From Daphnia pulex (taxonomy: Eukaryota; Arthropoda; Branchiopoda; Diplostraca; Daphniidae), in NCBI RefSeq assembly GCF_021134715.1, contig NC_060020.1, positions 8,060,001 to 8,124,000 on the forward strand: DNA of 64,000 nucleotides. The letters run 5' to 3'. Under the pieces are notes generated by a model. That model ran no database searches. It had not been told where the DNA came from and saw only the letters and a list, made by a program, of their open reading frames with translations. Made by a program: the position numbers and the translations under genes. This document shows positions 31,169 to 61,431 of the stretch, piece after piece. Position 1 is the first letter of the stretch, and each line of letters begins with the position of its first letter.

Positions 31169-31289
31169 ACCTTTTTTTACTGGCTACCACAGCTATCAAA
31201 CATCTCCCTAATTTGTTTCTATCATTATATTAACTTTTTTGTCTTCAGCAGCCTTTTTTTTTCTTTTTTACCACCAAAAACCAATCGAA

Positions 31290-31451: not shown

Positions 31452-31489
31452 GAAGTTGTCTGGAATTACGTCATTTGAAAGCGGATTTA

Positions 31490-31735
31490 CTGGTATTTTT
31501 AAATTTACTGGTAAGCCGACTGGTAAGCCAAAAAAAGACTGGCTAAATGACGTGTTTACTGGTAAGCAAAAAAGACTGGTAAGCACTGGTAAGCCAACTG
31601 GTAAGCACTGGTAAACCAACTGGTAAATACACTGGTAAAGACACTGGTAAACACGGTACGAAAACATTGGTAAGCACGGTGCGAAAACACTGGTAATTGG
31701 TAGTAAACCAGTGGCGAAAAAGAAAAAGAAACTAG
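31490..31735. repeat. E1 left subterminal array (ACTGGTAA)
   Basis: More than a dozen ACTGGTAA/ACTGGTAAGC words in one orientation follow the left terminus, spaced roughly 10-20 bp. Confidence 0.9.
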
Positions 31736-31771
31736 TAATCGTTGTTGTTTAAATTAATAACATAACAGTAA

Positions 31772-34700
31772 TCATTTGCCGGCTTTCTTTTGTTTCTTGT
31801 GTGGGGGTTGAAGCCTCCTCTGGCCTTTGTTGGAGCGCGCACGCTTCTTTGACTTAGAAGATTCCTTCGTTTTTTTGAATGAGGTCCTTGAAGGCTTGGA
31901 TGGGGTCTGGGATTTGCCCTGGGTAACCGTTGCAATAGTGGCAATTCCATTTCATGGAGGTCCCCGGGAATAATAAAGTATTCTGCTTTAGTTCCCTGTC
32001 CTTCTTCTTGCAGCAATGAAGATGTACTGCCAGTGGGCATCCATCAGTGTCGCACACAGACACGTCGATGCCATCCGCGTCGAGGCATAGGTAGCAGAAC
32101 ATGCAATCGCCATCTAGATCGAAGATCTCCCATTCGGTTTCATCGGAATCGTCGTCCATGTCGTTGATGAGAACACTGGTTCTGTTTTGTAATTCGGACT
32201 CTTCATCCTCTTCGTCGTCGTCTTCACTGTTGAAACTTCCGTCTTTTTTCTTTTTTTTCTTTTTGAGGTCTTGTACTTTGCGTTCGTGCTTCAAAATATA
32301 AGTCACACACCACTGAAATATTGTTACCCTCTCCAGATCTTTTTCTTCTTGATTGAGTTTTTTCTTTGTTTTTTTCTATGAAGAATATAAAATATTTTAG
32401 CTAATTGAAATAGCATACCTCAGTTTGTTTTGTTGATCTTTCTTTCGATTTGTTCAAAAAGGAAACGAATCCGCTCGTGCTCATGACATTGACAGTTTTT
32501 CCAGTGTTGGTAATTGACTTGGTAGAACTGGTATCACTGGAGGTGGAAGGCTTAGCGGAGATGGTACCAATTGGTATTTTCTTCGCGGGCATGACACCAG
32601 TGCTTTTGTTTGATATTTTCTGTGTAACGGATGTATTAGGGGTTGTGGTCTGTCGACTTCCTTTTGGTTTCGGTAGACTAGGTGCAGGTATAACTGCCTT
32701 TGATAGAGATACTAGTGCCTACCAGTTAAATGAATGAGAATATATAATATTTACTGTCTTTGTTTTGAGGTTAGAACATTCGTCGGTGTCGTCGATAGTT
32801 TTGTCCTGGAAAATTATTTTGCTTAACTGCCCAGGTGATTGCTCGCTTTCTGTGGCTATAGCAATCATTGTTAAACACTAAAAGGATGTATACCGATTTC
32901 TTGCTGAAGGATTTGCATCATCTTTCTCATCTCCGCTAACTTCTCCTTAGCTGATAATGTAGAGGCCATTAACTGTTGTTGAGGTTTTAGGTCGTTGGGG
33001 GCGCACATCGCAGCGACAGACTCCTGCCTAGAAGTAGGAGGAGGGGGAGCAGGCAATCCACTGTCCTTGGATGGTGTGGATTGTGGTCCTTGTTTGGGTT
33101 TGTTAGTTCTAGAGGATCTTCGTTTGATCTTCTCGATTTCGGTGGTGGTGCAGAGCTCGTCGTGGAAGTGCTTGTAGACGAGGATGTGGTAGAAGACGAT
33201 TCCCCTTTTACTTGAATGTTATCAGCTCTCAGTACTTCGAGCTCTGCGCGGCGCTTCATATGGCTTGTTTTGTTGACTTCAGGTTTGTAACATCCATTAG
33301 GGCCTCCAAATAAATTCTCGATTCGCGATCGCAAGTATGATTCTGGAGTGGCACCTTCTACTGCATTGCAGAACATGCCATACTTGACCTGGAAGGCTGC
33401 GTGGCTGGGATTTTGTTGGGGGTCCCATGCATTGCGATGATAAAGGTCTAAGTGGTGACGCTCCTATATTTAAAAAAAGAATGATTATGCGTCAAGAACT
33501 TTATTACCGATCTCCATGCAAGTTTCAGGAAAATCTTGTTGTCCTCTAACCATATCATGAAGTCTTCGTTGTGGGTCTTGATATTTCGCCCCAGAATTCC
33601 TGCAAGTTTCTCTTCGTATGTCAAGCCGGAGGGGACTCCGTTTAGGATGTGATGGAAATTTAAGAAGGCAAAAAAGCTAAGTTGCTCGCTTGTATACTTT
33701 TACGTTCCAAACTTTCGAATTCTATTGATGAGATAAATGAAATTGATTTTTGATTACCTCTTTTTGGTTGTCTGTTCTTCTTCTTGCTCGTCATCTCCGT
33801 TAACATCGTCTTCATCTTGCACTGGCGGAGGCACTTGCACTGGCGGAGGCACTTGCACTGGCAGAGGCACTTGCACTGGCGTAGCCACTGGTACAGGCGT
33901 AGCCACTGGTACAGGCGGAGCCACTGGTACTAGTGGATTGGTTACAGATGGGTGAGGGGCTGTAAACGGGAGAGGGGATATAAATGTCGGAGTGGCTGCA
34001 AATGATGAAGGGTTTGCATCTGGAGACTTAGCCAATAGTCGCGTATCAAAGGAGACATGTGAATAACTGGAGGAATCACTTGAGTTCGAGGTATTGATCT
34101 CCTCATCTTTATTGCTTTCATCGTTTATGAGTGAGAGAAGATTACCCGTTGCGGTAGGTTCGTTGGTGGTATGGGTAATATTAGATGAGAGATTTAATTT
34201 AACCGGACATTTAGTTTCTTCGGGCATGGAGGTTTTTGTTTCAATTTTGGATAGTAGGTTTCTTATTGGAGTATCGCTTCCGGATGTGTTTGCGAGCATT
34301 CTCAGGAACGATTGGACTTCAGGGTTACTCGCTACTCTGAAGAGTTCGCTTATTCGATTTTTATCTGCAGCATTCTGACTGGTTGTTTGGCACTCCTCAG
34401 GATTTGAGCCGATGACCTCCTTGTTATTCTAAACACTATTAGAAAAAAAAACTTGAAATCATACACTGCCATGGTCTTTGGTGTGATCTCGGGATTCTCC
34501 TTGGTTGGAAACGTTTTCAGTACCAAGTGTAAGGATTCTGAGATGCGCCTTTCTATTTTTGATCTGGGTCAAAGTTGATCCAAGTGCCTTTCTCTTTTGT
34601 GACCTGTTGTGACCTACCAATTTCCCTTTCTCTTGACCTATTATTTCTCACTTTCCCTTTACTTGTTTTCGGTATAAAACCCAACGCAGAGTCTCATTCT

Positions 34701-35049
34701 TTAGTTCAGTCTTTCTGACTCACCCGTCGCAGAATGTTACTGTGTAGCTCAGTGTCTCACTACTGGCTCACTTGTCACACCTCTCGGGTTTATTCTTCAT
34801 TTCATTATTGTTTCCATATTCATGTTTTCACCCGTCTCATGCTAGAGAAGTCTTGCGCTTCGCATGTAGTCACGTAAGCTAATGTGAACAATACAATTCT
34901 TTACGCTTTTAAATTAATCTTTAAGTTGACGATTGAGCGGAAACAGCCACACGGCCTATCCATTCAATTCGTTGCACAAGCACGCCTGTAGATGACTCCA
35001 AGGGAGCATCAATATGTGTGGACGCAGGGAGTGGAACGATAGGGGTCAT
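31772..35049 (-). pseudogene. E1 accessory gene (PHD finger), interrupted by an insertion
   Basis: ATG at 35049 starts MTPIVPLPASTHIDAP, matching the LPAST start of the E2 gene. The reading is cut at about 34923 by foreign sequence and resumes near 34530 (ENVSNQGESRDHTKD). Downstream come a Ser/Thr-rich part with PVPVATPVQVP repeats (34378-33754) and the conserved block at about 33700-33240 (HNEDFMIWLEDNK..., then ERHHLDLYHRNAWDP and ATPESYLRSRI). A further exon lies near 32600-32400. The last exon (32306 down) has an acidic stretch and a complete PHD finger: CMFCYLC, CDTDGC, HLHC, CHYC. A one-base slip in an A run near 31870 decides between a stop at 31854 and a basic tail ending at 31772. 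Confidence 0.8.
34530..34923 (+). mobile_element. Insertion of about 390 bp in E1 accessory exon 1, with promoter features
   Basis: Comparison with E2 shows foreign sequence between the LPAST start and the rest of exon 1. It contains TATAAAA at 34673-34679 and TTCAGTC at 34705-34711, a TATA-initiator pair on the plus strand pointing toward the E1 transposase. It could be a solo LTR or MITE. Exact ends are uncertain (AAG occurs at both sides). Confidence 0.6.
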
Positions 35050-35156
35050 CCTGGTTTTGGTGTTATTCAACCGAAACAAAAAAACAAACTTGAACACTAA
35101 CAACTAGACTTCGTAATAAATAAATACGAAACTGCTCTAACCAGTCAACCAATGCA

Positions 35157-35166
35157 CCAATGACGT
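35157..35166. promoter_or_regulatory. Terminal-type motif CCAATGACGT in the E1 central promoter
   Basis: CCAATGACGT at 35157-35166 equals the motif next to the right termini (CCAATGACGTTTTTCCAGAC at E0). The same motif lies between the divergent genes of E2, E3 and E6, with a shorter version in E4. It may be a shared binding site. Confidence 0.55.
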
Positions 35167-35277
35167 CCAGGCTTACCAATGATAGCTTGACAAATGTTAA
35201 CGCACATAAACAGAGTTGTTAAGATATATTTTTATCCTTGAAACAATAGACCGGGTTTGTCTATTTGAACCACCGAC

Positions 35278-37940
35278 ATGAGAAACATGTTCTCATCGAT
35301 TTTCGGTGAAGACGAGCTGTGGCGACAGTATACTGTCAGGAATTTCTCTTCGGTTGCGTGCCACCCAGAAATTTTCGATTATTACTCCCAGTTCGTCGGA
35401 GTGCCAATATTAAAAGACAAGTATGGTTAGAATACTGCAAGTCTTTTAACTTTGCGAAATTTTTCCTCGACAGACAGGAATTATTCGAGTTACTATACTA
35501 TCTACGCGTATACCCAACAACTCGTCAATGCGGCTTCCTTTTTGGCAATAAAACCTGTTACAGTGATATGCTGGCGAAGTTCCAAGCTCAAATGGAGTAC
35601 CTCATATCGAAAAATAAATTCACCGAGCACTGGAATCGCAAAAGATTCTCGGTCGACAATATGCTTCCACATTTCTTTTCGATATTCACGAACGGATGCG
35701 TGGACACGGTGGACGTCACGACGCGAAAACCGTGTGACTCGAAAACCAGAGAGTGAATATACACTGGCAAGTCAAAGACATGCTGCATTAAATGGCAAGT
35801 ACTGTGCGACAACCTTGGGCATATAATACATGTTACCGGACCCTTTTCATCTCTAGAATACGATGGCCACATCTGGCAGGATAGCGTAGAGGAGCTTGGT
35901 CTTTGGAATGGAACGGAGGAAGACAATCCGGAACACTCGAAGAGATTCGAAGTATTCATTGGCGACAACCACTATATGACTGCTCCGCAATGCGCAACAC
36001 CAGTGAACAAGCAAAACAAAATTCGCTTAGATCCAATGGAGGTTCAGTATAACAATTACTGCGGCAGTATGAGATCCACTATAGAACAAGTTTTTGGATA
36101 TCTTAAAACCTGGGCAATCATTGGAGGCGTCTACAGAGGTATGATTGGTCGAGAAACTGGTTATAAATTTTTATCTACAGCAATAATGTTTTGCTGTGAA
36201 TTATACAATGCGCGCTTCACTATTCTCGGCAACAACAAACGCAATATCAGAGTTTTCGGAAGAGACGCTGACGGTGTACCCTTATGCCCGCCTCCTAATC
36301 TCACTCCTGAGAACCTTAGAATCAGATTAAACATACACAACCAGTTATCTCGATTCAATAAAGTCTCGTACAAGCGATTTTACTTTGCCTACGACATCGA
36401 CTCCAGAAATACCAGTGACTCTTTCCATACTGGCGATCATGTGTGGCTTTTTATCGAAGATCAACAAGATTTCATAAAGGCAAACATTACAGGATGTGTA
36501 AACGACCTTTTCTCTATCAGATCCGCAGACAAAAAACTTTGTCGCACTGGCATAAGCCCGTCGCTAATATACAAACGTATAAAGAACTCTAAAGACAAAC
36601 CTGTATTGGCTCACTATGTCATACCATCACGTCTTATTCCAATTTCTTTTTTTTCAAAATGCAAACACCTCGTCAGCCTCAGGTACGACCTCATACTTTT
36701 TATTTAAAAAATTCTCTGACCAGTCACCGCCAGTTCATCTTCGTCGTTACCAGTGTCATCTGCATATCCTAATAATACAGCTCCGATGGTTACCAGTTCC
36801 AATGCATCCAATGTTGAAGTACCATCATTCGATCTCACATGCTCAGAGTTATACGACAGAGTATTCGACGCAACCAAATCGAACCTGGATGAAAACGAAA
36901 TATCCGATTCGGAAAACGAAACATCGTTCCTTGACGATGAATTTCGTTTCGAACTCGGCTTGTCCGACCCGGAAGAGGACGACGTACACGCGGAAGACGC
37001 AGATGATCCTCCTTTGCATGAAGCCGACAACGACACGCAAAGCAACTCAAGCGACATGATAACGGGTGATTCATCTGAACAAAATCCCTGGGAGATCATA
37101 TCGGATGCCGAGGATGATGCTATCATTTGTTCATCTAGCTCGGAAAGGGAACAGCTCACTAAAAGCGACATTAAACGACTACTCAACAGAAATTGGATCA
37201 ACGATCAGATCATAAATTTCTTCTCTGACAGTGTCAATCAACACACTTCGGGAGAGTCGATGATACAAATCAAAACCCATTTATGCAACACCTGTCTCTT
37301 TCGGAGACTTTCAACCACTTCAGCACACGGAGAGATTGGCCGCTACAACTTCAGCTCCGTTAGGCGTCATTTCAGAATCGAATGTACGAAGACATGGCAA
37401 ATCGAAACGTTCTGTGTGCCAATCCACATTCAGAGATCTCACTGGCTATGTTGCGTCATAAAAGTACCCGAAAGAACTGTACTGGTAATAGACTCATTAC
37501 CGGAGTTTGCGCCTGAGGTATCTCTTAAACGAATTGGTGATTATTGCCGGAAATGGTATACAGACGAACTCAAAGCAGCCTTAAAGCAAATTACAGCTGC
37601 AGACGGTCCATACTACGTTGGCAACCCAATCGAGCGCGAGACCTTAGTGCGCGAGATAAATATACAGATTCATAACACTGGTACCGCGAAAGACTGGGAA
37701 GTTGTACCAACGACTTTCTGGCATCAAGGCGAGGATAACACATGGGACTGCGGCGTATTCACTTTGCTTACGATGTTCTACTTCTCCTCAACCCTAAAGA
37801 ATCAACTGCAATTACCAGTAATAACAGAAGAAAACGTCAAAATGGCGAGAATGGTTTTACTGAAGTTCATTAACTACAAGTACACTACTAAGTCAAACGA
37901 GCATTTAGACCCTAATGTTCTTTTTGATTTTATACTTTAA
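35278..37940 (+). pseudogene. E1 DDE transposase-Ulp1 protease fusion with one nonsense codon
   Basis: Exon 1 (35278-35420) starts MRNMFSSIFGEDELWRQYT. A 53-bp intron has borders GTATGG...CGACAG. Exon 2 (35474-36682) carries the DDE domain: VDTVDVTTRKP, GDNHY and RSTIEQVFGYLK. A TGA at 35754-35756 stops it just before IYTGKSKTCC, where E2 is open. A second intron (about 36683-36733) is inferred from frame and GT-AG borders. Exon 3 (36734-37940) encodes an acidic linker and the C48 protease with SHWLC (His), VIDSLPE (Asp), WHQGEDN (Gln) and WDCGVF (Cys). The protease half is intact. Without the stop it would match E2 throughout, so recent inactivation or a base error are both possible. Confidence 0.85.
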
Positions 37941-37969
37941 ATTAAAATAAAACTACCAATTAAATCATT

Positions 37970-38299
37970 CAATTGAATACAATAACCATACCAGTATAAT
38001 ACCAGTATAATACCAGTTAAATACCAGTGAAATACCAGTACCAGTGCACTGGTAAGCACGGGTAATAAATAGCAGGAAGTCGATGACGGACAATTTTCAC
38101 TGGTAAACACTGGTAAACACTGGTAAGTGGATGTCATTTTCACATCGCTGGCGCTTAAGCTGTAGGCACATATTTGACTGGTAGCGCGTAGCGCGCTACA
38201 CTCTCCGTGACACGGCGATTCCGAAAATCGAAAAAATGGGGTATTTGGTCGACAAAATTACCAGTCTACCACTGATTCCAGTCAATTCCAGACAACTCC
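37970..38299. repeat. E1 right subterminal array (ACCAGT)
   Basis: ACCAGTATAAT, ACCAGTGCACTGGTAA and related words are dense up to 38140 and reappear before the terminus at 38288-38299. Confidence 0.85.
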
Positions 38300-38360
38300 A
38301 CTGGTTTCCAAAAAAAAACCAGTAAATTTGCTAACCAATGACGTTTTTCCAGACAACTCC

Positions 38361-38858: not shown

Positions 38859-39306
38859 TTAAATTGCGAAATCGAAGAGGATGTTTGGGTCGAAGTGTTC
38901 ATCGGACTTCGTTGTGTACTTGTAATATATAAACTTCAAGAGTACGAGGCGCATTTGCTTCACCTTCTCCTCGTTTAGTTCCGGGGTCTGAAGTTGGTTG
39001 CTTTGGTGTGATGCGAAGTAGAACATAGCCAGCATCATCAAAATACCGCAGTCCCATTCATTTTGTTCGCCTTGGTGCCAGAAAGTTACTTGTAGAAGCT
39101 GCCAGTCGTTGATTCCGTATAGTTTAATATTGATATTTTGCATTGTCGCCTCTCGTTTCACTGGATCAGCGATGTAAAGAGGACCACCAGCTTCGGTTAT
39201 TGATTTTTTCGAAGCATTCATCTCAGACTTGAACCAGTTGAAACAGAAGCGTCCAATGCGCAGCCTTGTTTGTACTGGTGTCAACTCTGGTTTCGAGTCG
39301 ACAATT
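38859..39306 (-). pseudogene. E3 Ulp1 protease C-terminal piece, cut off by E2
   Basis: The frame begins at the insertion site with VDSKPELTPVQTRLRIGRFC (the catalytic Asp in VDS). It contains WHQGEQNEWDCG (Gln and the catalytic Cys) and ends FDPNILFDFAI. Its missing first half is at 45432 onward, on the far side of E2. The codons around the ATT duplication join in frame (ELL then IVDSKPE), which proves the two pieces were one gene. Confidence 0.92.
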
Positions 39307-39319
39307 GGAGTTGTCTGGC

Positions 39320-39660
39320 GCACACTGGCGCCAGTGGTACACTGGTATTGACCCCTTCCTAATACCCTATTTTTGTTATATTTCCTGAATCGCCGTGTTG
39401 CGTAGGGTATGTGGTACCCTACGCACCAGTCATATGTGTGTAACGGCTAAGATCGCCAGTGGTGTACCAGTGACGCTTTGCGTACCAGTTGTTTACCAGT
39501 GTACACTGGTACGCACCTCATGTCATCGACCTCTGCTTACTTATTTACTGGTATGCATGACTGTTATTTACAAATACACTTTGGTTTAATATATTTAACT
39601 TTTTCCACCAGTTACATCGACTGGTGGATACGTTGCACTGTCATAATCAAGCTAAGTGTT
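39320..39660. repeat. E2 left subterminal array (CCAGT/ACTGG)
   Basis: ACTGGCGCCAGTGGTACACTGG, GTACCAGTTGTTTACCAGTG and ATTTACTGGTATGC words in both orientations between the terminus and the stop codon of the transposase gene. Confidence 0.85.
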
Positions 39661-39678
39661 TAGAGATAATGGTGTCAA

Positions 39679-42209
39679 TTAAATATTCGGATGGAATAAT
39701 ATACTTGGGTCGAATTCCTCTTCGGATTCGGTCAAGTACTTATATCTTATAAAATTCAGTAAGAGTAGGCGCACTTTGTCGATATCGGCTTGAGATAAAT
39801 CGGGTGTTTGTAAGTGGTTCTGTTGGCTATAGCAAAAAAAGGTCATCGCCATTAACGTGTAGATGCCGCAGTTCCAAGTATTTTGTTTTCCTTGGTGCCA
39901 GAAAGTCACTGGTATTACAGGCCAGTTGTCGATGTCATATTCACGGATCATAAAATTTATTTTTTGGACAGAGGCTTCACGCTGAATTGGGTCGGGAATG
40001 TAAGACATGTCACACGGATCGATAATTGACTTCACCGAAGATTTCAAATCGTCTTTAAACCATTTTCTGCAGTAAGACCCAATACGGATGGCTGTCTTCT
40101 GTTCAGTGTATTCTGGTTTCGAATCAATTACTAGAATTTGCTTATCCGGCACTTTAATAATGAAACAAAGCCAGTGAGATTTTCGGATATGAACTGGTAT
40201 GCACATTGTGTCCAGGTTCCACACTGTAATCCCTCCGAGTTTAGTGTGCCGACGCACTGATTTGTAGTCGTAATGGCCAATTTCTCCATGGACGTTAAAA
40301 GATCCAAGTTTAACGCACAGCCATGTATTGAAAATATGCGTCGAAATCCCATTACCAGTACTGGTGTAATTGCCGCCGCCAGTGTCGACGCTTGCGCTGT
40401 TCTTTAAAAATTGGTTGATTCCAGTGGAGAAGTAGTTTAAAATTTGATCATTTAGCCACCGTCTGTCCAGTAGTGTAGCAACATCTTTTTTAGTTAGTCC
40501 GATTTCCCTGTTATGAGATGTGCTGATGATGGTTTTGGGATCAATAGTCGAAAAACAGCGCCAAGGGTTTTCATTTTCTTGAGATAACTGTTCAGCGAGG
40601 TCTTCTTCGACTTCCGTGCATACCTCCATGGCACCAGTGTTCATTTGCTCAGAATCACCGGTCTCCTCTTCGTCTTGGTTGATGTCTCCTTCATCGTCAA
40701 TGTCTTCGATTCCCATTTCGTTTAATATTTCGTCGTCAAGTAGAACTAAATCATTATCAGAGGCATCCGCTTCAGGCGGCCAATCGTCGCCAGTGGGACA
40801 CTCGCTCGGAGATTGTTTGAAATCATCTATGTGAACAGATTGAAAAGAGACTGGCAAGACTAGAGAAGCGGGATTGGTGTATTGAGATAAAATTGGTTTT
40901 TCTCTGGAGTTCTTAACACGCGGGAAAATATTTGATGGCTTTACTCCAGTGGCGCAAAGTTTTTTGTTGGCGGATCGGATTGAAAACAGGTTATTGACGC
41001 ATCCTGTGATGTTTGCTTTGATGCAATCTTGCATACTCTCGACAAAAACCCAGACATGATCTCCAGTACGGAAGGATGAACTGGTGCACTTCGAATTGAT
41101 ATCTGCCTCTAGGTAGAACACATCGTTTGATATTTTGTTGAACATCGAGAGCTGTTTGTGTAGGTTGAATCTTATTCTAAGATTTTCTGGTGTCAGATTA
41201 GGGGGAGGGCATAAAGGTACGCCGTCATCGTCACGAGCGTAAACGCGTATATGCCGTTTGTTGCCACCGACTATAGTGAATCTGGCATTATATAGCTCGC
41301 AACAAAAATGAACAGCCGTGTTAAGAAATTTGAAGCCAGTGTCTTTTTGAAGCATGCCGCGGTAGACTCCCGATATTATTGCCCAAGTCTTTAGGTAGCC
41401 AAACACTTGCTCGATTGTGGACCTTGTACTTCCTAAAAAATTGTTGTACTCAGTTTCCAATGGATGCAATGTTTGGTTTTTTGGTTTGGGTTTTGGTATT
41501 GGTGAAGCGCAATGTGGCGCAGTGGAGTAGTGTCCATCGTCAATGTAGACTTCGAACCTTTTGCTATGTTCCTCATTTGATTCGTCGATGCCATTCCATA
41601 ATCCAAGTCCTTCGAGACTGGCTTTCCATATGTGCCCATCGTAGTCAAGGGAAGAATGTGGTCCATCGACGTTTATAATATGACCCATGTTGTCGCACAC
41701 AACTTGCCACTTTATGCAACAGGTCTTGGACTTTACTGTGTAGATGAACGTGCGAAACGCAAAGTCTGTTGGTTTTCTTGTTGTCACGTCCACAGTGTCG
41801 ACGCTGCCATTCGTGAAAACAGAGAAAAAATGCGGAAGCATGTTTTCTGCAGAGAATCTCTGTCGATTCCAGTGCTCGATGAATTTAGTTTTTGAAATTA
41901 GATACTCCATTTGAGCTTGGAATCGCGCGAGCATGTCACTGTAGCCTGTCTTATTGCCAAAGAGAAATCCGCACTGGCTTGTTGTCGGGTACACTCGTAA
42001 AAAGTACAATAATTGGAATATGTCTTGTCTAATAAATTATAACAATTAAAGAGTTTGCCAATGTACTTGTCTTTTAAAATAGGTACACCGCAAAACTGAG
42101 AATAATAATCGAAAACCTCAGGGTGGCATGCAACTGACGAAAAATTTCGAGTAGTGTACTGTCGCCATTGCTCGTCGTCGCCGAATAAGTTTGAGAACAC
42201 ATTCTGCAT
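39679..42209 (-). CDS. E2 DDE transposase fused to Ulp1/SENP-type cysteine protease (830 aa)
   Basis: ATG at 42209; exon 1 is 42209-42067, a 38-bp intron spans 42066-42029, and exon 2 is 42028-39679. The same intron position is seen in E1, E4, E5 and E6. The N-terminus reads FGDDEQWRQYTTRNFSSVA. The DDE_Tnp_4/PIF-Harbinger-like domain follows (about residues 115-275): VDTVDVTTRKP (first Asp), SLDYDGHIW, DDGHY (second Asp, about 211-212) and RSTIEQVFGYLK (Glu about 254). Next are CPPPNLTPENLRIR and a GDHVWVF...FSIRSANKK segment that could be an SH3/Tudor-like barrel. An acidic linker follows (about 470-530). The C48 protease (about 565-830) has SHW (His666), VIDS (Asp683), WHQG (Gln760) and NCG (Cys768). 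All catalytic residues are present. It should cut and insert its own DNA; the protease may remove SUMO or a SUMO-like tag, or process a protein. Confidence 0.93.
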
Positions 42210-42438
42210 GATTGTTGTGCTAACAGAGTCCTTCCAGGGTTTTGTATTTTTAGAAAAACATATGTTGGATATGCGCTGACATCTGTTGTTCCTTTGTCGT
42301 ACGCTTCAAGTTCACTGGTAGGCAATACGTCATTGGCTCACTGGTACACTGGCTATTTGAAACTTAATCTTTCTTAGCTTCATAAATTCTCGTTCAAGTA
42401 TGGTTTTCTTTTTAGTGTCATTATCTGAAAAATTTTAA
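42210..42438. promoter_or_regulatory. E2 divergent promoter region
   Basis: The 229 bp between the two start codons contain ACATATGTT (42258-42266), GCGCTGACAT (42273-42282) and ACGTCATTGG (42327-42336). The ACATATGTT/GCGCT pair recurs between the genes of E3, E4 and E6, and in looser form in E5. ACGTCATTGG also sits next to the element termini. Two ACTGGTA/ACTGG words follow. It probably drives both genes and may be autoregulated. Confidence 0.65.
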
Positions 42439-45067
42439 ATGGAAAATTTAACCATGCTCCCTGCGTCTACACTTGACGAGGAAAATAAAAGTTCGCCCAG
42501 TAGAGCTACTACGGGAGAATCGTCAGAGTTCAATCCCGTCGATGAGAGACAGGATGCTTGCATGGGACACGTTGAAAACAAGTCTGAGAACACTTCCAAT
42601 GTAAGAGAGGCCATCGTTTCATTTTTTCATGGTACCCAGGACACGTCTGTTTTGCCTCAGCCTAACTTGACCAATTTTGCCCAACCCATTACTTCAGTTT
42701 TGCCTCAGCCCAACTCAACCAATTTTGCCCAACCCAATACTTCTGTGTTGCCTCAGCCTAGCTCAACCAATTTTGCTCAACCCAATGTTGCTCAACCCAA
42801 TGTTTCTCAACCCGCCGTCATTCAGTTGCTCCAGATGCTTGCAAATTCGAGTCTTCAACAAACCATTTCTAATAATGCTTTTGGAACATTTCCTGTCATT
42901 ACTCAAGCCCAGCAAAATTTGCTTACCCAGTCAAACACGAGCTCCAGCACCAGCTCCAGTGCCACTTCAGCACCAGTGTCCCAACCTTCGGTTAACCAGT
43001 CAACCACAAGCTTTGGTTTCAGTACCAGTTTTACACCAAGCAGTGGAGTGTCTTTGCTACAGATGATGCAAAATGACTCAATCGACGAAAACGCTGAAGA
43101 TGAAAATGGAGATGCCGACGAAGAGTACGAGGGGGCCGACGAGGAAAATGGAGAAGAGGAAGAACCTCTAGACAACGCACCAGTTCGAAGATCTCGACGG
43201 TAAAAAAAATGTGTCTCAACACTTATCTCTACACAGGAACCGAGGGCCGACAAGCCGCTACACATCAGAGCAACTCAGCTTCTTCTCATTTCTGGCGTAT
43301 CATCACATACTACACGCAAACCCCCACGGGCTACCTTATGAAGAAAAGGTTAAGCGCATTGCATTGAAATCGATAAAGTACCACAACGAGGACTTTGTGA
43401 TTTGGTTGGAAGATAACAAAGTTTTCCTCAAGGATAAATGGAGAGTAGTAAGTTGTTATTTTGTATACTCTGATACCATTTAACCTTTAGGAAAGACCTC
43501 AACCTCTATTCTTCGAACCAGTGGGACCCATTGAAAAACTCAGCTCATTCAGAGTTCCAACGAAGATTCAAACTATTTGCCAGTGCCGTCGACGACTCAA
43601 CGCCGACGGCGTTCTTGAAAAGCAAAATTCCCACTCTCTTTACGAATGGCTTGTACAAGCCAAATGCCACGACGCAATCTTTCCCCACCAGACGCAAGCG
43701 CTTGCAGCTTTTACTGACACCTCCGGCGACAGGTGACCAACCCGAGCCGGCGCCCCCGACTAGAGTTGCCATCAAACTCGAAACCAAACAGGTACTGAGA
43801 AACCGCGCAAACTATGGTAAGCCCGCTCCAATGTCTGTCCCTCCGCCTCCTATTCCTGCTATTTCCAAGCAGGATAAAGTCGCCGCAATGACTCAACAGA
43901 GCACGTCAGACCTAACTGCGCTTGCTTCTTCAGAAACGTCATCGGATGAGCAATTACTTGACGAATATAAGAAGAAGGTTGAAGCTATCCAGCGCCGCAT
44001 TGGTAGGCACTAGTTATCAGATTTAATTTTGAAATTATTTTCGTAGAGGAACGAAACAAGCCTAACTCAACTGGCGCCATCGAGACACCGTCGACCATCA
44101 GCAAAGCCATATTCGACAATCACGATACTGATGACAAAGACCCCAATTCCAACGCAAAATCGAAGAACGTAAGCACTTCTAAATGATGATATTTATCTTA
44201 TTAATGCAGGCACTGGCATCTCTTTCCGCTTCGGTCATTCCTCCCCCGCAAACCAAGACACAATCAACAAAGTCAAAAATCACACCACTTCAAAGAGTAG
44301 CCAGTATGAGCACAGGACTCGCACCTGAGAATGTCTCGAAGAAGAACATTCAAAATGTCAAAGTTGTTACGGGCGGCAACTTTAAAGCTTTTATGAGTTC
44401 CTCGGCTACAAGAGAACAGATCCAAAAAGAGGTGAGTTTAATGATTATTTGTTTCTAATATTTTTTCAATTACTAGAACAAAACAAAGAAGAAGTCCAAG
44501 GCAGAAAAAGAACTTGACGCGGTTCATTTTTATTCATTTAGCTCACTATTTATTTATGAATCATCACACACAGTTCGAAGCCAAAACACAAGGAAAAAAA
44601 CAAGAAATGCTGATTGGGACCAAAGCGAGGAATCCGAACAACAGCAAGAAGATGAAGACGGAGAAGTAGACGAAGACGGAGAAGGGCACTACGACTTAAC
44701 ACTGGCGCACGCCAACGAAGAAAACAGCGAATGGGAAGCCACTGACGAATTGGGCGACTGTCTGTTTAGTTATTTATGCCTTGATACAAAGGGAATACCA
44801 GTGTATGTCTGTGATTCGGAAGAGTGCCACTATGCCGTACACTACGAGTGCTGCGTGCAGAAAGATAAGGAGATCCGGATGCTCACAACTCTTTTCCCCG
44901 ACTTTGATGAGAAGTGGTACTGTCATCATTGCATTGGTGGAGTTCCTGGCCTAATCAAGGAACCGATCGCTGCCTTCAAGGAGCTCACAAAGAAGAAACC
45001 GAAGGCCTCGAAGAGCTCCAAAAAAGAAAGCAGCCAACAAAGACCAACGAAGAGAGTTCGCAATTAA
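42439..45067 (+). CDS. E2 accessory protein: low-complexity N-terminus, conserved block, PHD finger
   Basis: ATG at 42439. Exons: 42439-43199, 43237-43447, 43491-44002, 44047-44168, 44210-44431 and 44477-45067, all with GT-AG borders. Exon 1 is Ser/Gln/Pro-rich with three SVLPQP...TNFAQP repeats and an acidic end. Exons 2-3 hold the conserved block (YTSEQLSFFSFLAYHHILH, HNEDFVIWLEDNKVFLK, then QWDPLKNSAHSEFQ). The last exon is acidic, then carries a PHD-type finger (about 44756-44930): CLFSYLC, CDSEEC, HYEC, CHHC. One of the first Cys pair reads Ser, although a nearby Cys could substitute. The end is basic (KKPKASKSSKKES...). The join of exons 2 and 3 is off by two bases by simple splicing, so a small deletion or unusual splice is possible. 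Probable role: chromatin or DNA targeting partner of the transposase. Confidence 0.82.
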
Positions 45068-45239
45068 CAGTACCAAATAGAATGCATGACTACTTAATTA
45101 GCATTCTTCTTGCATATGGTACACTGTATCGTGTTGGCTACTGCCGCAGCCCCAGATTTTCACCTAGTTCTTTAATTATCTTAATGCATGTAAATGTTAT
45201 AAACATTAAATTTAAAAAAAAATTTTAAACCATTTTTTG

Positions 45240-45431
45240 ATGGTATAAACCAGTGTACCAGTAAGTGTTTACCAGTGGTGTACCAGTGGCTCACCAGTGT
45301 ACCAGTGTACCAGAAAATCCGTCGTTCTACCAGTAAAATATTTATTGCGTACCAGTGTGCGTACCAGTGTACCAGTCCCGGACAAAATACCAGTAAAAGC
45401 GCGTACCAATGGCGTTTTTCCAGACAACTTC
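45240..45431. repeat. E2 right subterminal array (ACCAGTG)
   Basis: ACCAGTGTACCAGTAAGTG, ACCAGTGGTGTACCAGTGG and similar words, then CCAATGGCGTTTTTCCAGAC at the terminus. Confidence 0.9.
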
Positions 45432-47535
45432 ATTAGCAGCTCCTTCTCTCTGACCTTCAGGATGCAACATAACCAGTAAGACGCTTGTAGACTAACTGGT
45501 ATGCTTATGATATCGAGGTCCCATGGAGACCTCGGTTGCTGTCTGAAATACCGACGAACACCGTGGTAGCTATAGTTTCCTAGTTCTCCGTGGCTAGACA
45601 TTGAACTAAATTTTGAGAATAGCCAAGTGTTGCAGATGTATGATTGTTGTTGGTTGACGTCCTCAGCACTGGTAAGCTCTTGTTCAATGTTATGTTGATT
45701 GCAACTCTGAGTGAAGAAGTTCATGATTTGGTCGTTTAGCCAGTGTCTGTCTAACAACTTGCTTGCGTCTCTTTTGGTTAGCTCGATGTCTCCTCGGTGA
45801 GATGTGCATAATATTGATAGCGGCTTAACTTCTGAAAACTTTCGCCATTCCTGTTGTAATTCGACTTCCACTGATTGGTCGTGTTGAGATTCGTCGTCGA
45901 CTTCAATGTCTATCGCTGTCGACGGATCATCCGCGTCTGAATCAGAGTCAGGGCGTTCATCGTCTTCACCATCGACTGCGATTCCCATTTCATCTAAAAA
46001 TTCTTCATCGAGGAAGAATACCTCGTCTTCACTAGAATCTCCGTGATCATCGTTTAAAGGCCATGCATTGGTGATGGGTGCTCTGGCTTCGTCTTCGTGA
46101 CTGGCATCCGTTAACCTACTGGTAGACGTTGAATGACTGAAATTGGCGTTGTCGGTCATGACGTCATTGGAAGGTATCGACGCTTGAGCTGATAAGACGA
46201 AGTGTTCAATGATTGGTTTGTCGATGGAGTTCTTTACCCGTGGAAACACGAGTGACGGAGGAGTGCCAGTCGCAGCATACTTTTTGTCTGCAGATCTGAT
46301 TGAAAACAGGCCATTGACACACCCGGTTATATTGGCTTTAATGAAGTCTTGTTGGTTTTCCATTAACACCCATACGTGGGCGCCAGTGCTGAAAGACGAA
46401 CTGGTGTTGCGCGAGTCGATGTCTTTTGAAAGATAGAATATTTCTTCAGATAATTTATTGAATCTCGATAATTGATTGTGGATGTTGAGTCTTACGCGAA
46501 GATTCTCCGGTGTCAGATTAGGAGGTGGGCATAAGGGCACACCAGTTTCGTCTCTGGCATAGACTCGAATCTCGCGTTTCTTTGTCCCTAAAATTGTGAA
46601 ACGAGCATTATATAATTCACAGCAGAAGTTGACGGCAGTCGAAAGGAAGTTGTAGCCAGTTTCGCGCATGAGTAGGCCACGATAAACACCACTGATAATA
46701 GTCCATGTCTTGAGATATGCAAAAGCTTGTTCTACTGTTGATCTTGTGCTTCCGAAATAGTTATTGTACTGTGTTTCTGTTGCGTCAAGCTTTCCGTTGT
46801 CTTTTTTTATGGGGACAGCGCAATGCGGTGAATTCATGTAGTGATTGTCACCCAAAAACACTTCGAATCTTTTGCTGTGTTCTGGGTTATTCTCGTCAAC
46901 ACCATTCCACAAACCAATGCTTTCATAAGAGTCATTCCATATGTGGCCATCGTAGTCAAGAGACGAAAACGGACCAGTGACGTGGATGATGTGGCCCATG
47001 TTGTCGCATAGAACCTGCCACTTCAAGCAACATGTCTTAGACTTGCCAGTATATATAGAGTTACGATGCGCAGAGTCTACGGGCTTTCGGGTAATTACAT
47101 CAACCGTGTCGACGCTGCCATTGGTGAATATAGAAAAAAATGCGGGAGCATATTATCAGCCGAGAAGCGTTGGAGATTCCAATGCTCGGCGAATCTCGTC
47201 TTCGAAATTAAATATTCCATTTGGTCGTGGAATCTTTTCGACATGTCGCTGTAACTGGTTTTGTTACCGAAAAGAAAACCGCACTGGCTTGTCGTTGGAT
47301 AAACTCGAAGGAAATAAAGTAGTTCGAATAATTCTTGTCTGAGCGGGTAGGGGTAATAATGGTTAGGAAAATAAAAGAAACAAACTTTACTTATCCTTAA
47401 GTATCGGTACCCACAGAATTGAGAGTAGTACTCAAATACCTCCGGGTGGCATGCCACAGATGAAAAGTTTCTGGAAGTGTATTGGCGCCATCACAGCTCA
47501 TCTGCTCCGAATAGATTACAGAACAGATTCTGCAT
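45432..47535 (-). pseudogene. E3 transposase-protease, N-terminal part, frameshifted and cut by E2
   Basis: ATG at 47535 (MQNLFCNLFGADEL). An extra in-frame TGA follows DEL before WRQYT. One base is missing in GGGTACC (FCGVPILKD becomes FCGYRYL), and one T is missing in the run before SIFTNG (47135 area). From about 47100 the frame is open through the DDE domain (GDNHY, RSTVEQAFAYLK), the CPPPNLTPENLRVR segment, the acidic linker and the first half of the protease up to SYWLCCILKVREKELL, where E2 interrupts it. The intron at about 47393-47342 matches other copies. The rest of the gene is at 38859-39306. Confidence 0.92.
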
Positions 47536-51575: not shown

Positions 51576-51759
51576 GCTTATTTAGGAGTTGTCTGGGATC
51601 AAGTGTCGGCACTGGACGTAGCCGTTACAAGTTGGCCAAGCTTTTTATGTGGTCGTTGGATAGCGCATGGGTCGGGCTACGCAGTGGTGTGGTCGCGCGC
51701 AGTGACTAGTGGACGTAACGGCCTGGGTCCAATGTTAAAATATCGTTGTTTTTTCCGCA

Positions 51760-51905
51760 ATGTTTACCAATGATACCAATGATCATTGCGACAAAATTGT
51801 GCACATTCGTTGTGTTATGTGCTGTCATCGGTTCCCAATGTTACCAATGATTTGCTGCCAATGTTACCAATGATTTACTGCCAATGTTACCAATGATACC
51901 AGTAA
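51760..51905. repeat. E4 left subterminal array (ACCAATGAT)
   Basis: ACCAATGATACCAATGATC, CCCAATGTTACCAATGATTTG and GCCAATGTTACCAATGAT. The motif differs from the CCAGT of E0-E3 by one base plus extension. Confidence 0.85.
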
Positions 51906-51967
51906 AAAATGTGGATTTTTTTGCTTAAGTTAAAATCATATATTATTTTTCTCATTTTAATTAGGGT

Positions 51968-54488
51968 TTAATACAGTAAATCAATTGCAACGAATGGGTC
52001 GAGGTCTTCATTTGACTTAGTCATATACTTGAAACAGAAGAAATTCAGCAACATTGAGCGAAATGATGAAACAGCTTCGCATGCTTTTTCGTTGTCGTCT
52101 GGGAGAGTTTCTCTGCCAATCCCGACGAAGTGTATGAACATTGCTAGAAGCGTGTACAAACCGCAGTCGTTGTCGTTGTCCCGTGTCCAGTACCTAGCAA
52201 GTTGTATCTTCCAATCTGGCGGAGACTCGATAAAGGAATTGAGTTCCTCCATCGTCTGCTCTCGTTCGAAAGGGTCTTCGATGTAGAAAATGTGTCCTTG
52301 ATCGACAATCCAAGATTTATTTGTTTTTAATTCGTTAGATAATCACCTATTTTGCGTACAAGCTTCTCATCAGGATCTCCAGCAGAAAAAGAATCTATCA
52401 GTAATACTCGCGATTCCTTTCTCTCAATGATTGCGGATATCCAGTGATTGTTGCCAAGGTGAACAGGTATGCAGATGCAGTCCAGAGTCCATGGTCTAAC
52501 TCCCTCGACTCTGAAAAAACGGCGTACTGAGTTGTAATTTATGTGCCCAATTCACCACGTCGAGAAACATTCGCCAGTTTGCAGAAGAACCACGTATTGC
52601 ACATGTAAGCACTACGACAAGATTCGTATTTTTCATCTTCATCTAGTCTGTAGTTGTTGCCGTTCTTGATGAAAAAATTAAGGATTTGATCATTTAGCCA
52701 CCGACCAGGTAGAAGTAACTCCGCATCCTTTCTGAATATTTCGACAGATGACGACGCAGTACTGCAGATTACTTTACGCTCTGGTATGGTTAAGATAGTC
52801 TGCCAGGGATTTAGATCGTCGTGCTTCAAGTCCTGTGTGAGATGATGATCTGGTTGCTCCTCGTATTCGTCGTCGGATTCGGCAAAATCAGAGATTTGGT
52901 CAAGACCCATTTCTTCGAGAAATTCTTCGTCTAAATGTGTCATCTCCGATTGCATGTAGTCATCAGGTTGTTCGTTGAGTTTATCGAATGAATGGGTCAG
53001 TGAGCTTTGGGAGCTCATTGAATGTTGATCGATTAATGTTTCCACTGAGGCATTATTCGTTTGTAATGCATCGCTCGTGTGATCATGTTTGACTTCAACG
53101 TCAAAAGAATTATTTGAAAGAAGATGCTCGTCCGCCATTGGGTACAGAACCGACGCTGCATGTTCGGCGATGTTTGGTTTGCTGTTGCCAGATTTATTTC
53201 GTTTGAATAGATTGGTAGGCTTTATAGAGGTAAATGCCATTTTTTTGTTAGAAGAGCGAACAGAGAATAAACCGTTTAGACATCCAGTTATATTGCCTTT
53301 AATGAAATCTTGAGACGGTTCATGGAACATCCATATTGGATCAGTTGTTTTGAATGTTGTTATCTCGTTTTTAGAGTCTATGTCTTCAGAACGATAAAAA
53401 GGCTTGTTAGATACGGTCTTGTATCTCGATAACTGCGCGTGAATATTGTCTCGTAACGTAAGATTAGCGGGTGTAAGATTGGGAGGAGGACAGACAGGAA
53501 CACCGTCAGAATCACGCAATACTACTTTCATCTCACGTTTATTGTGCCCAAGGATTGTAAAACGAGCGTTGTATAGCTCACAGCATAGTAAAAAAGCGGT
53601 CGAAAGGAAGGAGTATCCATTGTCGTGTAACAGCATTCCTCTGTATACAGAGCTGATTATAGCCCATGTCTTGAGTTATCCGAAGACCTGCTCGATTGTT
53701 GACCTGACGCTGCCGATGAAATTGTTTTACTGCTCCTCGATCGGATCAAGCTTTGAGCGATTGTTTCTTTTAATAGGCACTGCGCATTGCGTCCCAGTCA
53801 TATAATGATTGTCGCCAATGATGACCTCGTATCTATTGGCGTGCTCTGGATTGTCGTTACTCACTCCAACCCATAGATCGAGATTGGGGTAAGTCTGCTC
53901 CCAAATTGTACCGTCGTAATCTAAAGAATAGAAAGGACCGTCTACTTGTATAATATGACCTAGATTGTCACATATCACTTGCCATTTTATGCAACATGTT
54001 TTAGATTTGCCGGTGTAAATCGAAGACCGTAATTTGGAGTTGCTTGGTTTTCTGGTTGTGATGTCGACGCTATCGACGCAGCCGGTTGTGAAGATAGACA
54101 TGAAATGTGGCAAAATGTTATCTCTAGAAAAACGCTGAAGTTTCCAATGTTGGACATAATCGGTTTTTGAGATGAGGTACTTCATTTGAGAGTGGAATCT
54201 TGCGAGAAGGTCACTATAGCCAGTCTTGTTGCCAAATAAAAATCCGCGTTGACTTGAAGTTGGGTATACTCGTAGGTAATAGAGGAGATGAAATAGCTCT
54301 AGTCTGAAAAAAAAATAAAAAAAAACGAAAACTGATTACGGGTCACGAAGGATGGGAACACCTCAAAATTGCATATAAAATTCGAAGACCTTTGGATGAA
54401 CAGCAACCGACGAGAAGTTGCGCACTGTGTATGTCCTCCATAGTTGGTTCTCGCCGAATAGAGAAGAAAATACATTTCGACCTGCCAT
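51968..54488 (-). pseudogene. E4 DDE transposase-Ulp1 fusion, multiply disabled
   Basis: ATG at 54488 (MAGRNVFSSLFGENQLWR). A TGA replaces Cys in QF*GVPILRD. The intron at about 54345-54305 is in the standard place. TAA codons replace the Tyr in EEQ*NNF and in QVFG*LK (about 53730 and 53675). One base is missing at RRGELG-HINYN (about 52541), and another shift occurs near 52340. Despite this the DDE motifs (VDSVDITTRKP, GDNHY, RSTIEQVFG) and protease motifs (NHWIS, LIDSF, NDCGLY) are clear. The Gln before the catalytic Cys, WHQG in other copies, reads WTRD here. It is non-functional. Confidence 0.9.
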
Positions 54489-54663
54489 GACATATGTTAC
54501 CTATGCGCTCGCTACTTATGTTAAAAAACATTGGTGTCGCATTGTCATTGGCAACAACTTGTCATTGGGTACTGGCTACCTTTTTATATGACAATTTTTG
54601 TTTCTTTGTGTTTTACTATGTTTCCTTGTCATATTCTCAGTTTTCATCTATCGTTTAAGTCCT
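54489..54663. promoter_or_regulatory. E4 divergent promoter region
   Basis: CATATGTT (54491-54498) followed by GCGCT (54505-54509), then two GTCATTGG copies (54544-54551 and 54561-54568). These are the core of the motif next to the termini (AATCTGTCATTGG). Same layout as E2 and E3. Confidence 0.55.
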
Positions 54664-57471: not shown

Positions 57472-57589
57472 TGGATTTAAAGCGATGTTACCTCCCCCCC
57501 CCTCTTTCATTTTCTCTCTCTTTTTTAAAATAACATTGGCAATCTTTATTAATGTTTATTACCACGACGAGAACACATCTCCCCCAGTG

Positions 57590-57840
57590 TGTGCCAATGT
57601 TCGCAATGATTTACAATGTAATTTAACCAATGTTTCCAATGATACCAGTAATTTTGTAACCAATGTTCCCAATGTTTACCAATGTTTACCAATGTTTCCC
57701 AATGAAAAAATGCAACCAATAATCCTGTCATTTACTTAATGATTTCCCATTACGCTTTCAATGATTCCCAATGTCTACCCGTTACTTTCCGTTACACTCT
57801 CAATGACCATCCGTTACGCCAAAAAAAAAAAGATGCGACC
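57590..57840. repeat. E4 right subterminal array (CCAATG)
   Basis: About a dozen CCAATG/CCCAATGTTTACCAATG words between the accessory stop codon and the terminus. Confidence 0.85.
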
Positions 57841-58021
57841 AATGACAGATTCCCAGACAACTCCTTAGGGCTTAAAACTTATATATTTTCATTGGTTGTT
57901 TATTCAGATTGTTAGACAAAGCAAGGTTAGGGTGTGAATAAAAAAACAAGAAGATATCTGTCGAAAATAGTTTGTTTGGGTATAAAAGCATTTCGAGGAT
58001 GAACGGAAAGGCTTGCTGTTT

Positions 58022-59920: not shown

Positions 59921-59979
59921 TGTGCTGACATATGATGCCTTAAGCATACATATGTTATTCAAGTTGTTTCAGGCTGGAG
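59921..59979. promoter_or_regulatory. E5 divergent promoter region
   Basis: GTGCTGACAT at 59922-59931 and ACATATGTT at 59948-59956 lie between the two genes, in the opposite order to E2. This matches the opposite orientation of E5. Confidence 0.45.
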
Positions 59980-61431
59980 ATGGAGGGAAAGACCAGCAAA
60001 AACACACCCTTAGCGTTCACAGACCTATTCGAAGAGGATATGCTGTGGAGAAGATGCACTGTTCGAAATTTTTCGTCAGTGTGTGTACATCCAGCTATAT
60101 TCGATTATTATACCCGGTTCTGCAATCATCCTATTTTACCCCATCCGTAAGACTATGATTTTTTTCTAAGTATTTTTCACTAATATAGAAAGGAGTTATT
60201 CCATCTTCTTTATTTTTTACGAGTGTATCCTACTGTCAGCCAGTGTGGCTTTTATTTCGGAAATAAATCAAATTACGGCGATATAACATTCAAATTTCAC
60301 CAACAAATAAAGTACCTTCTTTCGAAATCAAACCTAATGAGCCACTACAACAACAGAAGATTCTCTCTCGACAACCTTTTACCACATTTTTTTTCCGTGT
60401 TCACCACAGGCTGTGTAGATTCATTACCTATAAGAGTTCGCAAGCCCTCGGCATCAGTCTATCGCTATCCTTTGTATAGTGGAAAATACAAGACATGTGT
60501 TGTAAAGTTCCAAGTAATCTGCGATCACCTTGGCCACCTTCTTTCTTTCCATGGTCCATATTCCGGTCTCGATTACGACTCAACAATTTGGGAAAAATCA
60601 TACCACCAATTAAATTTGTGGGTCGACAACGACTCTACCAATCCGGAGCATCGACATCGATTCGAAACAGTATAGTAGATTGCCACTACATGAACGGATC
60701 TCAGTGCACAGTTCCATTTGTTAAACCTGGAACCGGGTCGCTTTCGGAGACAGAAACTCTCTATAACAATTATGTTAGCTACGTACGCGCAACTATCGAG
60801 CGAGTAATCAGATACGTTAAGTGTTGGTCTATTCTAGGCACGATATATCGTGGAACGCTTCACGAAAGTTTCGGTTATAACATGCTGTGCGACTCTTTCC
60901 GATTAATTATCGAGTTATACAACCGCCGATTTTATTTGTTTGGTCACAACAAAAGGAACATCGTCGTCATAAAACGAGATCACAATAATAATCCTATATG
61001 TCAACCGGACAATTTCACACCGGAGAACATTCGAGTCCGACAGAATCTCCATCATCAACTGCAATCATACAAGTCAATAAAGGATGGATTATTCTTCAAG
61101 GAAGCCGATATAGTATCCGGCAACAACACTTTTTCCCTAAGCACTGGCGATTCTGTCTGGGTTTTCATAGAGAAATCCCAATCTTTTTTGAAAGGCAACA
61201 TCATGGGATTCAATCAATCTAATAACACATTCTCTGTTAGATCTTCCAATAAAAAAAATACTATTAACAACATTCCACCTAACATAATATTTCAACGCCA
61301 AGCTTTGTCGAACATACCTCCAGATACCTATTTGCACTCTTCTATAGCTAGGATGCCACAAGAACTTCTTTACAATGACGAGATTGACAACAAACACTGC
61401 GTCGTCAGAGGCAGTAACATCAACAAGTACG
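59980..61431 (+). pseudogene. E5 DDE transposase, frameshifted and lacking the protease half
   Basis: ATG at 59980 (MEGKTSKNTPLAFTDLF). Exon 1 ends 60146, a 42-bp intron ends TAATATAG, and exon 2 starts 60189 (KELFHLLYFLRVYPTVSQ). DDE motifs: VDSLPIRVRKP, LDYDSTIW, DCHYMNGSQC and RATIERVIRYVK. One base is missing after RFETV near 60675, moving the frame. The later frame is open through the FTPENIRVRQ and FSVRSSNKK segments to 61431. It then runs into E6 sequence in antisense, so everything after GSNINKY in this frame is spurious. The protease domain is absent. Confidence 0.88.

What the first reader, a model, noticed from the sequence alone, without database searches (positions are those of the whole stretch)
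39679..42209. PIF/Harbinger-like transposase fused to an Ulp1/SENP protease
One 830-aa reading frame carries DDE_Tnp_4-like motifs (VDTVDV, DDGHY, RSTIEQVFGYLK) and, after an acidic linker, a complete C48 catalytic set (SHW, VIDS, WHQG, NCG). Independent diverged copies (E1, E3, E4) keep the same fusion, so it is ancestral to the family and not a chance read-through. Ulp1 domains are known as passengers in plant MULEs and in some KDZ-type transposons. I know of no standard PIF/Harbinger element with this fusion. A deSUMOylase tethered to a transposase could control its own or its host's SUMO-dependent silencing.
Basis: partly seen in the sequence, partly recalled or inferred. Interest (0 to 1): 0.93.

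Follow-up and report, generated by a model that had tools for sequence, protein, structure and literature searches.

The report
Jumping gene fused to SUMO protease
A water-flea-like genome carries a cut-and-paste transposon whose DNA-cutting enzyme is fused to a protease of the SUMO-removing kind, so a jumping gene may bring its own tool for editing the host's protein tags where it lands or leaves.

Summary
The fusion is real: minus strand, 39679-42209, an 830-aa spliced protein with DDE_Tnp_4 (E 8e-15) and Ulp1/SENP C48 (E 4e-11) domains and complete catalytic residues. Five database relatives (37-49% identity) keep both domains in one frame.

New here is the element around it. E2 spans 39307-45431 (6,125 bp) with short inverted ends (GGAGTTGTCTGG...), subterminal ACTGGTA arrays and a 3-bp duplication (ATT). 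It jumped into the Ulp1 domain of an older copy, E3: rejoining the flanks gives a frame continuous from the DDE into the end of Ulp1. Neighbour U4 has duplication TTA. In 9 of 9 units the fusion gene stands head-to-head with a partner gene; 7 show a PHD-like finger, none a detected Myb/MADF domain.

So this is a Harbinger-like transposon with an intact transposase gene in E2, decayed sister copies, and all matches found confined to two clusters of a genome whose size fits Daphnia pulex. DDE-Ulp1 fusions are known in Ginger1, and ULP1 regions in CACTA and MULE elements; I found none described for PIF/Harbinger in the held papers (Repbase not searchable). Local deSUMOylation against silencing, or for repair, is inferred and untested.

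The parts
39307..45431 (.). E2 element (unit U2), 6,125 bp, Harbinger-like transposon holding the finding
   Evidence: Ends GGAGTTGTCTGGCG / GAAGTTGTCTGGAA (inverted), inserted in the E3 gene
39304..39306 (.). target-site duplication ATT, left
45432..45434 (.). target-site duplication ATT, right
42067..42209 (-). gene A exon 1
   Evidence: Spliced 830-aa frame; splice sites inferred, no transcript seen
39679..42028 (-). gene A exon 2: transposase, conserved middle region, acidic linker and Ulp1
   Evidence: within the 785-aa open frame, Pfam
41287..41802 (-). DDE_Tnp_4 catalytic domain; D80, D167, E209 of the 785-aa frame
40891..41268 (-). conserved middle region (residues 257-382), no known domain
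   Evidence: 40-71% identity to 12 copies and relatives; no Pfam match for the window sequence at E<=5; no PDB sequence match at E<=10
40717..40749 (-). conserved short motif LVLLDDEILNE in the otherwise variable acidic linker, SIM-like (inference)
   Evidence: pattern in 9 of 12 linkers, 0 of 2,400 shuffled linkers; the pattern was drawn from the same data
39691..40509 (-). Ulp1/SENP C48 protease domain; H621, D638, Q715, C723 of the 785-aa frame
42439..45067 (+). gene B, divergent partner (open pieces 42439-43203, 43474-44013, 44477-45067); exon joins not resolved
44708..44989 (+). PHD-like finger region of gene B; the E2 copy has Ser where other copies have the second Cys and itself matches no Pfam family
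   Evidence: similarity to other gene B copies; Cys pattern; other copies reach only sub-threshold Pfam scores, best PF13771 0.0017
39307..39676 (.). left subterminal array of ACTGGTA, 6 in 370 bp
   Evidence: 1.30 per kb in the E2 interior, 0.17 per kb in window 1-30000
45062..45431 (.). right subterminal array of ACTGGTA, 9 in 370 bp
45435..47535 (-). E3 gene A, 5' part, interrupted by E2
38859..39306 (-). E3 gene A, 3' part (end of its Ulp1 domain) on the far side of E2
   Evidence: frame resumes in register
31452..38360 (.). unit U1 with gene A copy E1 (35260-37940 +) and gene B (31854-34428 -); outer ends uncertain
51585..57864 (.). unit U4 with gene A copy E4 (51989-54479 -) and gene B (54945-57471 +); duplication TTA
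58055..61298 (.). unit U5: gene A (59950-61298 +) with no Ulp1 match, gene B (58055-59620 -)
61410..64000 (.). truncated E2-like unit U6 from the tandem duplication, continues past the window

Best explanation
E2 is a cut-and-paste transposon of the PIF/Harbinger-like kind with two head-to-head genes. Gene A makes a transposase with a C-terminal Ulp1-class protease on an acidic linker; gene B makes a partner with a PHD-like finger that probably also recognises the subterminal repeats. SHOWN by sequence: fusion, catalytic residues, termini, 3-bp duplication, past insertion into another copy, both domains shared by diverged copies. INFERRED: the transposase cuts at the inverted repeats and joins to 3-bp targets; the tethered protease removes SUMO (or a close relative) from proteins around the transposon ends, most likely relieving SUMO-dependent silencing at donor or target chromatin. 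Rough odds: mobile element with true fusion 0.95; protease activity in the ancestral protein 0.85; SUMO as substrate 0.7; local anti-silencing as the benefit 0.35-0.4.
For: Both domains over curated cut-offs. Among 12 rows with a Ulp1 domain (E1-E4, V1-V3, five database proteins; V3 and P0002 are nearly one sequence), Cys and Asp are kept in 12, His in 11 and Gln in 11; the exceptions are decayed copies E3 (His) and E4 (Gln) (duplicates E4b and E4c not counted again, U5 has no Ulp1). Over 8 copy pairs the Ulp1 part has pN 0.29-0.44 against pS 0.71-0.83, the linker pN 0.49-0.58; synonymous sites are saturated. The starred forks of the DDE and Ulp1 trees do not conflict with each other, and both trees have (E1,(V3,P0002)) and (P0003,P0006). 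Substrate class: best solved relatives Ulp1 2e-19, SENP1 3e-16, SENP2 2e-13, against SENP8 5e-5. Mobility: E2 ends, ATT duplication and a 721-aa E3 frame across the rejoined site; U4 TTA; a 540-bp short copy with AGT. ACTGGTA occurs 6 and 9 times in the outer 370 bp of E2 (interior 1.30 per kb, background 0.17 per kb); U4 uses CATTGGT, 5 and 5.
Against: 3-bp duplications were found for 3 candidate elements; candidate end pairs of U3 and V3 do not match, U1 is ambiguous, and no end pair was established for U5, U6, V1 or V2. Only one of the three duplications is TTA; the TWA preference of PIF/Harbinger (recalled) is not shown. Inverted ends are short (12-14 bp). The first catalytic Asp is lost in V1 and V2 (kept in 8 of 10 rows that cover it) and P0007 has Asp for the Glu. 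P0009, a long branch, sits in different places in the two trees, against one starred DDE fork. The terminal motif was found at 13 sites, all in two clusters, so recent activity here is not shown. No Myb/MADF domain was detected in the partner. Four of 10 relatives are listed without Ulp1, three of them visibly truncated.
Confidence: 0.6

Rival explanations
1. The protease helps transposition itself: it edits SUMO on DNA-repair proteins at the cut ends, or on the transposase or partner, controlling repair, excision or copy number rather than silencing.
For: Proposed for Ulp1/OTU in Ginger1 (PMC2836005 discussion passage). Fusion to the transposase would place the protease at the break. Catalytic residues are conserved.
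Against: Nothing in the sequence separates this from anti-silencing; no interaction data.
Confidence: 0.3
2. A domesticated host gene array: the fused protein serves the host and the cluster grew by tandem duplication, not transposition.
For: All matches found lie in two clusters; a block of about 20 kb is present three times; conserved protein sequence.
Against: E2 has termini and a 3-bp duplication and sits inside E3; U4 has its own duplication; E1, E3, E4 and V1 are broken and V3 has a frame break.
Confidence: 0.06
3. The Ulp1 domain is a passenger, or acts on ubiquitin or NEDD8, or is a self-processing protease that cuts the fusion apart.
For: C48-like enzymes include deneddylases and deubiquitinases (such chains also match weakly); the long linker could be cleaved.
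Against: Catalytic residues are kept at 26-29% Ulp1-domain identity in P0003, P0006 and P0009, against a passenger; similarity is highest to Ulp1 and SENP1/2. A Gly-Gly cleavage site was not searched for.
Confidence: 0.15

Closest known systems
PIF/Harbinger superfamily (two-gene elements)
   Same: DDE_Tnp_4 transposase, 3-bp duplications, inverted ends, a second gene, subterminal repeat motif
   Different: C-terminal Ulp1 fusion; 830 aa instead of the 400-500 aa given in PMC9710019 (passages); partner with PHD-like finger and no detected Myb/MADF domain
Ginger1 DNA transposons
   Same: DDE enzyme with C-terminal Ulp1; one family listed with Ulp1 and PHD (PMC2836005 abstract and table passages)
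   Different: Ginger1 DDE is Gypsy-integrase-like (abstract passage); its 4-bp CCGG-type duplication is recalled. Here DDE_Tnp_4 and 3 bp, and the PHD-like finger is in the partner gene
Plant CACTA-ULP and MULE-ULP1 elements
   Same: transposon carrying a ULP1-like region (PMC2528002 passages)
   Different: different transposase superfamilies and hosts
Crypton elements with C48 peptidase
   Same: mobile element encoding a Ulp1-related C48 peptidase (PMC3212892 passages)
   Different: tyrosine recombinase, not DDE; in some the peptidase is an additional protein

Membership tests
PIF/Harbinger superfamily | DDE_Tnp_4 transposase with D, D, E | tested here: met
   met in E2; first Asp lost in V1 and V2, Glu replaced by Asp in P0007
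PIF/Harbinger superfamily | 3-bp target-site duplication | tested here: met
   ATT (E2), TTA (U4), AGT (540-bp copy); U3 and V3 candidate ends do not match, U1 ambiguous
PIF/Harbinger superfamily | duplication of TWA type (recalled) | tested here: inconclusive
   one of three is TTA
PIF/Harbinger superfamily | terminal inverted repeats | tested here: met
   12-14 bp GGAGTTGTCTGG..., shared by several units
PIF/Harbinger superfamily | second gene with Myb/SANT/MADF domain | tested here: inconclusive
   second gene present; no Myb/MADF match in 10 open pieces at E<=10, but the spliced protein was not reconstructed
Ginger1 | Gypsy-integrase-like DDE core | tested here: not met
   the 785-aa frame matches DDE_Tnp_4 and, below cut-off, DDE_Tnp_1; no integrase family listed at E<=0.1
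Ginger1 | 4-bp CCGG/CCGT duplication (recalled) | tested here: not met
   3-bp ATT, TTA, AGT
Ulp1/SENP C48 peptidases | His-Asp-Gln-Cys catalytic set | tested here: met
Ulp1/SENP C48 peptidases | SUMO-specific cleavage | not testable with these tools
   sequence similarity only
Domesticated HARBI1-like gene | no termini or duplication | tested here: not met
   both present in E2

The most novel reading that the evidence does not exclude
A distinct Harbinger-like lineage that independently converged with Ginger1 on a transposase-deSUMOylase fusion plus a PHD reader. Transposase, protease and chromatin reader would form one complex that strips SUMO-dependent silencing at the element's ends and steers insertion into chromatin already holding related copies, which would explain the nested clusters.
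Probability: 0.25. Interest if true: 0.8.

Novelty: new variant of a known kind. Interest (0 to 1): 0.57.

Why it matters
Ulp1-type proteases keep being recruited by unrelated mobile elements. Adding a Harbinger-like lineage, with one intact transposase gene, a marked empty site and catalytic residues kept in distant relatives, makes the old guess that SUMO control matters for transposition testable: a single cysteine change in one fused protein would separate DNA cutting from deSUMOylation. If the host is Daphnia pulex, as genome size suggests, it is a laboratory animal.

Tried and rejected
Viral origin: no relative in viral contigs with the window protein or P0009. RNA families at gathering threshold and tRNAs: none. 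An integrase-like SH3 (GPY/F) identity for the middle region was my guess from memory and found no support (no match for the window piece; for pieces of P0003 and P0009 only unrelated matches, best E 0.0033, below cut-off; nothing). Ordinary dN/dS is not usable because synonymous sites are saturated. A first inverted-repeat scan gave mostly short or low-complexity hits; the terminal motif came from comparing units. Host gene array: rejected as main reading because of the empty site. SUMO-interacting motif in the linker: kept only as inference. Ulp1 elsewhere: of 32 PF02902 matches listed, 10 lie within about 3 kb of a listed PF13359 match, all in the two clusters (read by eye from the tables; both lists are lower bounds).

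Literature: the listings, and the passages read, showed no PIF/Harbinger-Ulp1 fusion. The library holds open-access papers only; Repbase, Dfam and subscription papers were not searchable, and the KDZ and Zisupton originals are known to me by recall only. The D. pulex DNA-transposon paper PMC2884549 lists two PIF families and its held text has no Ulp1 (passages).

Full report
OBSERVATION. The frame is on the minus strand. Stop to stop it is 785 aa at 39679-42036. Pfam finds DDE_Tnp_4 (8.1e-15) and Peptidase_C48 (3.6e-11), both over cut-off.

NOT A CHANCE READ-THROUGH. A search of about 5.8 billion proteins gave 10 relatives; P0002, P0003, P0006, P0007 and P0009 carry both domains in one open frame (37-49% identity to the window protein) and P0005 a partial Ulp1 match. 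A profile search returned the same 10. Their hosts are unknown to me. The profile matches solved yeast Ulp1 (2.2e-19), SENP1 (3.4e-16) and SENP2 (2e-13) far better than the NEDD8 protease SENP8 (5e-5). In 12 rows with a Ulp1 domain, Cys and Asp are kept in 12, His in 11 and Gln in 11; the exceptions are decayed copies E3 and E4, and V3 and P0002 are nearly one sequence. For the transposase, the second Asp is kept in all 12 of these rows, the Glu in 11 (P0007 has Asp), the first Asp in 8 of the 10 that cover it (lost in V1 and V2). Identity to E2 is 40-72% for the DDE and middle regions, 26-48% for Ulp1 and 13-35% for the linker. The two trees share (E1,(V3,P0002)) and (P0003,P0006), and their starred forks do not conflict. 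Against this, several forks are unresolved, and P0009, a long branch flagged as unsure, sits with P0003/P0006 by a starred DDE fork but with the E2-like rows in the Ulp1 tree (91/98, not starred). A single old fusion is the simplest reading; exchange of parts in the P0009 lineage is not excluded.

THE ELEMENT. Comparing units on two chromosome stretches shows head-to-head pairs of gene A (the fusion) and gene B in 9 of 9 units that I delimited (U1-U6, V1-V3; the triplicate copies of U3-U5 not counted again, and isolated pieces such as 30590-31168 and those near C10:9.768-9.771 Mb left out). A PHD-like piece is seen in 7 of the 9 (not in V1 or V2). Pfam scores of these fingers are below cut-off (best PF13771 0.0017, PF00628 0.0079); E2's own piece has no Pfam match and Ser for one Cys. 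No Myb, SANT or MADF match was seen in 10 open pieces of gene B scanned at E up to 10. A terminal motif, GGAGTTGTCTGGAA, recurs at unit ends, extended on the gene B side. E2 runs 39307-45431 with ATT on both sides. It lies inside the Ulp1 domain of E3: the E3 alignment stops at residue 636 and resumes at 635/636 in a fragment across E2, and the flanks rejoined with one ATT read for 721 aa without a stop, from the DDE domain to the end of Ulp1; upstream of that E3 has a separate frame break. U4 (51585-57864) is flanked by TTA, and a 540-bp short copy on contig 10 by AGT. Candidate end pairs of U3 and V3 do not match, U1 is ambiguous, and no pair was established for U5, U6, V1 and V2. Within 370 bp of the ends, ACTGGTA occurs 6 and 9 times in E2 and 12 and 11 in U1, 5 and 3 in V3, against 1.3-1.8 per kb in their interiors and 0.17 per kb in window 1-30000; U4 has 1 and 1, but CATTGGT 5 and 5. 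A switch of repeat motif between lineages suggests a DNA-binding protein that co-evolves with it; in zebrafish Harbinger3_DR the Myb-like partner binds a 9-bp subterminal motif (PMC9710019, passages).

GENOME CONTEXT. The genome has 133,188,837 bases in 13 contigs. D. pulex is given as 133.2 Mb (PMC12926508, passages), so I infer D. pulex; not proved. The matches listed for the fusion protein (39), for the gene B piece 43474-44013 (14) and for the terminal motif (13 with up to 3 mismatches, control 0) all lie in two clusters, C4 near 8.09-8.16 Mb and C10 near 9.75-9.81 Mb. A block with U3-U5 is present three times on C4, spacings 19,682 and 20,839 from the coordinates; E2 heads the first copy and truncated E2-like units the other two. 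Other DDE_Tnp_4 matches are scattered over the genome (148 matches in all, a lower bound).

MECHANISM. Shown: an element with a conserved transposase-protease fusion that has jumped. Inferred: DDE cutting at the inverted ends, 3-bp staggered joining, partner-assisted recognition of subterminal repeats, and SUMO removal near the ends. A short motif in the linker (LVLLDDEILNE in E2; pattern in 9 of 12 linkers, 0 of 2,400 shuffles, pattern drawn from the same data) resembles a SUMO-interacting motif (resemblance recalled). I favour relief of SUMO-dependent silencing over repair control, only slightly.

KNOWN KINDS. Ginger1 transposases carry C-terminal Ulp1 or OTU, one family Ulp1 and PHD (PMC2836005, passages); plant CACTA and MULE elements carry ULP1 regions (PMC2528002, passages); Cryptons carry C48 (PMC3212892, passages). 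No paper listed was seen to join PIF/Harbinger with Ulp1. Hence a new variant of a known kind, with the caveat that Repbase and Dfam were not searched.

Noticed in passing
window about 41800-64000 and C4:8.10-8.16 Mb: Tandem triplication of a block of about 20 kb (start spacings 19,682 and 20,839) holding U3-U5, with a junction inside an E2-like gene A.
   Followed up: partly
window about 30000-34000: GC rises from mostly 0.32-0.40 to about 0.40-0.45 near where the element cluster begins.
   Followed up: no
C10:9808416-9808955: 540-bp short copy with family termini and AGT on both sides, beside gene B of unit V3: a possible non-autonomous derivative.
   Followed up: partly
window 20901-21338 (-): ORF with WHECLGHAGHSKIHHIYSSKIIDGL, which looks like a Copia gag-pre-integrase remnant (recalled, not searched).
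   Followed up: no
window 29610-31168 (+): PKP/TGAPKP-repeat ORF followed by a PHD-like piece of a gene B without its own gene A found beside it.
   Followed up: no
window 40891-41268 (-): Conserved 126-residue region between DDE and linker with no match in Pfam (window sequence) or PDB sequences.
   Followed up: partly
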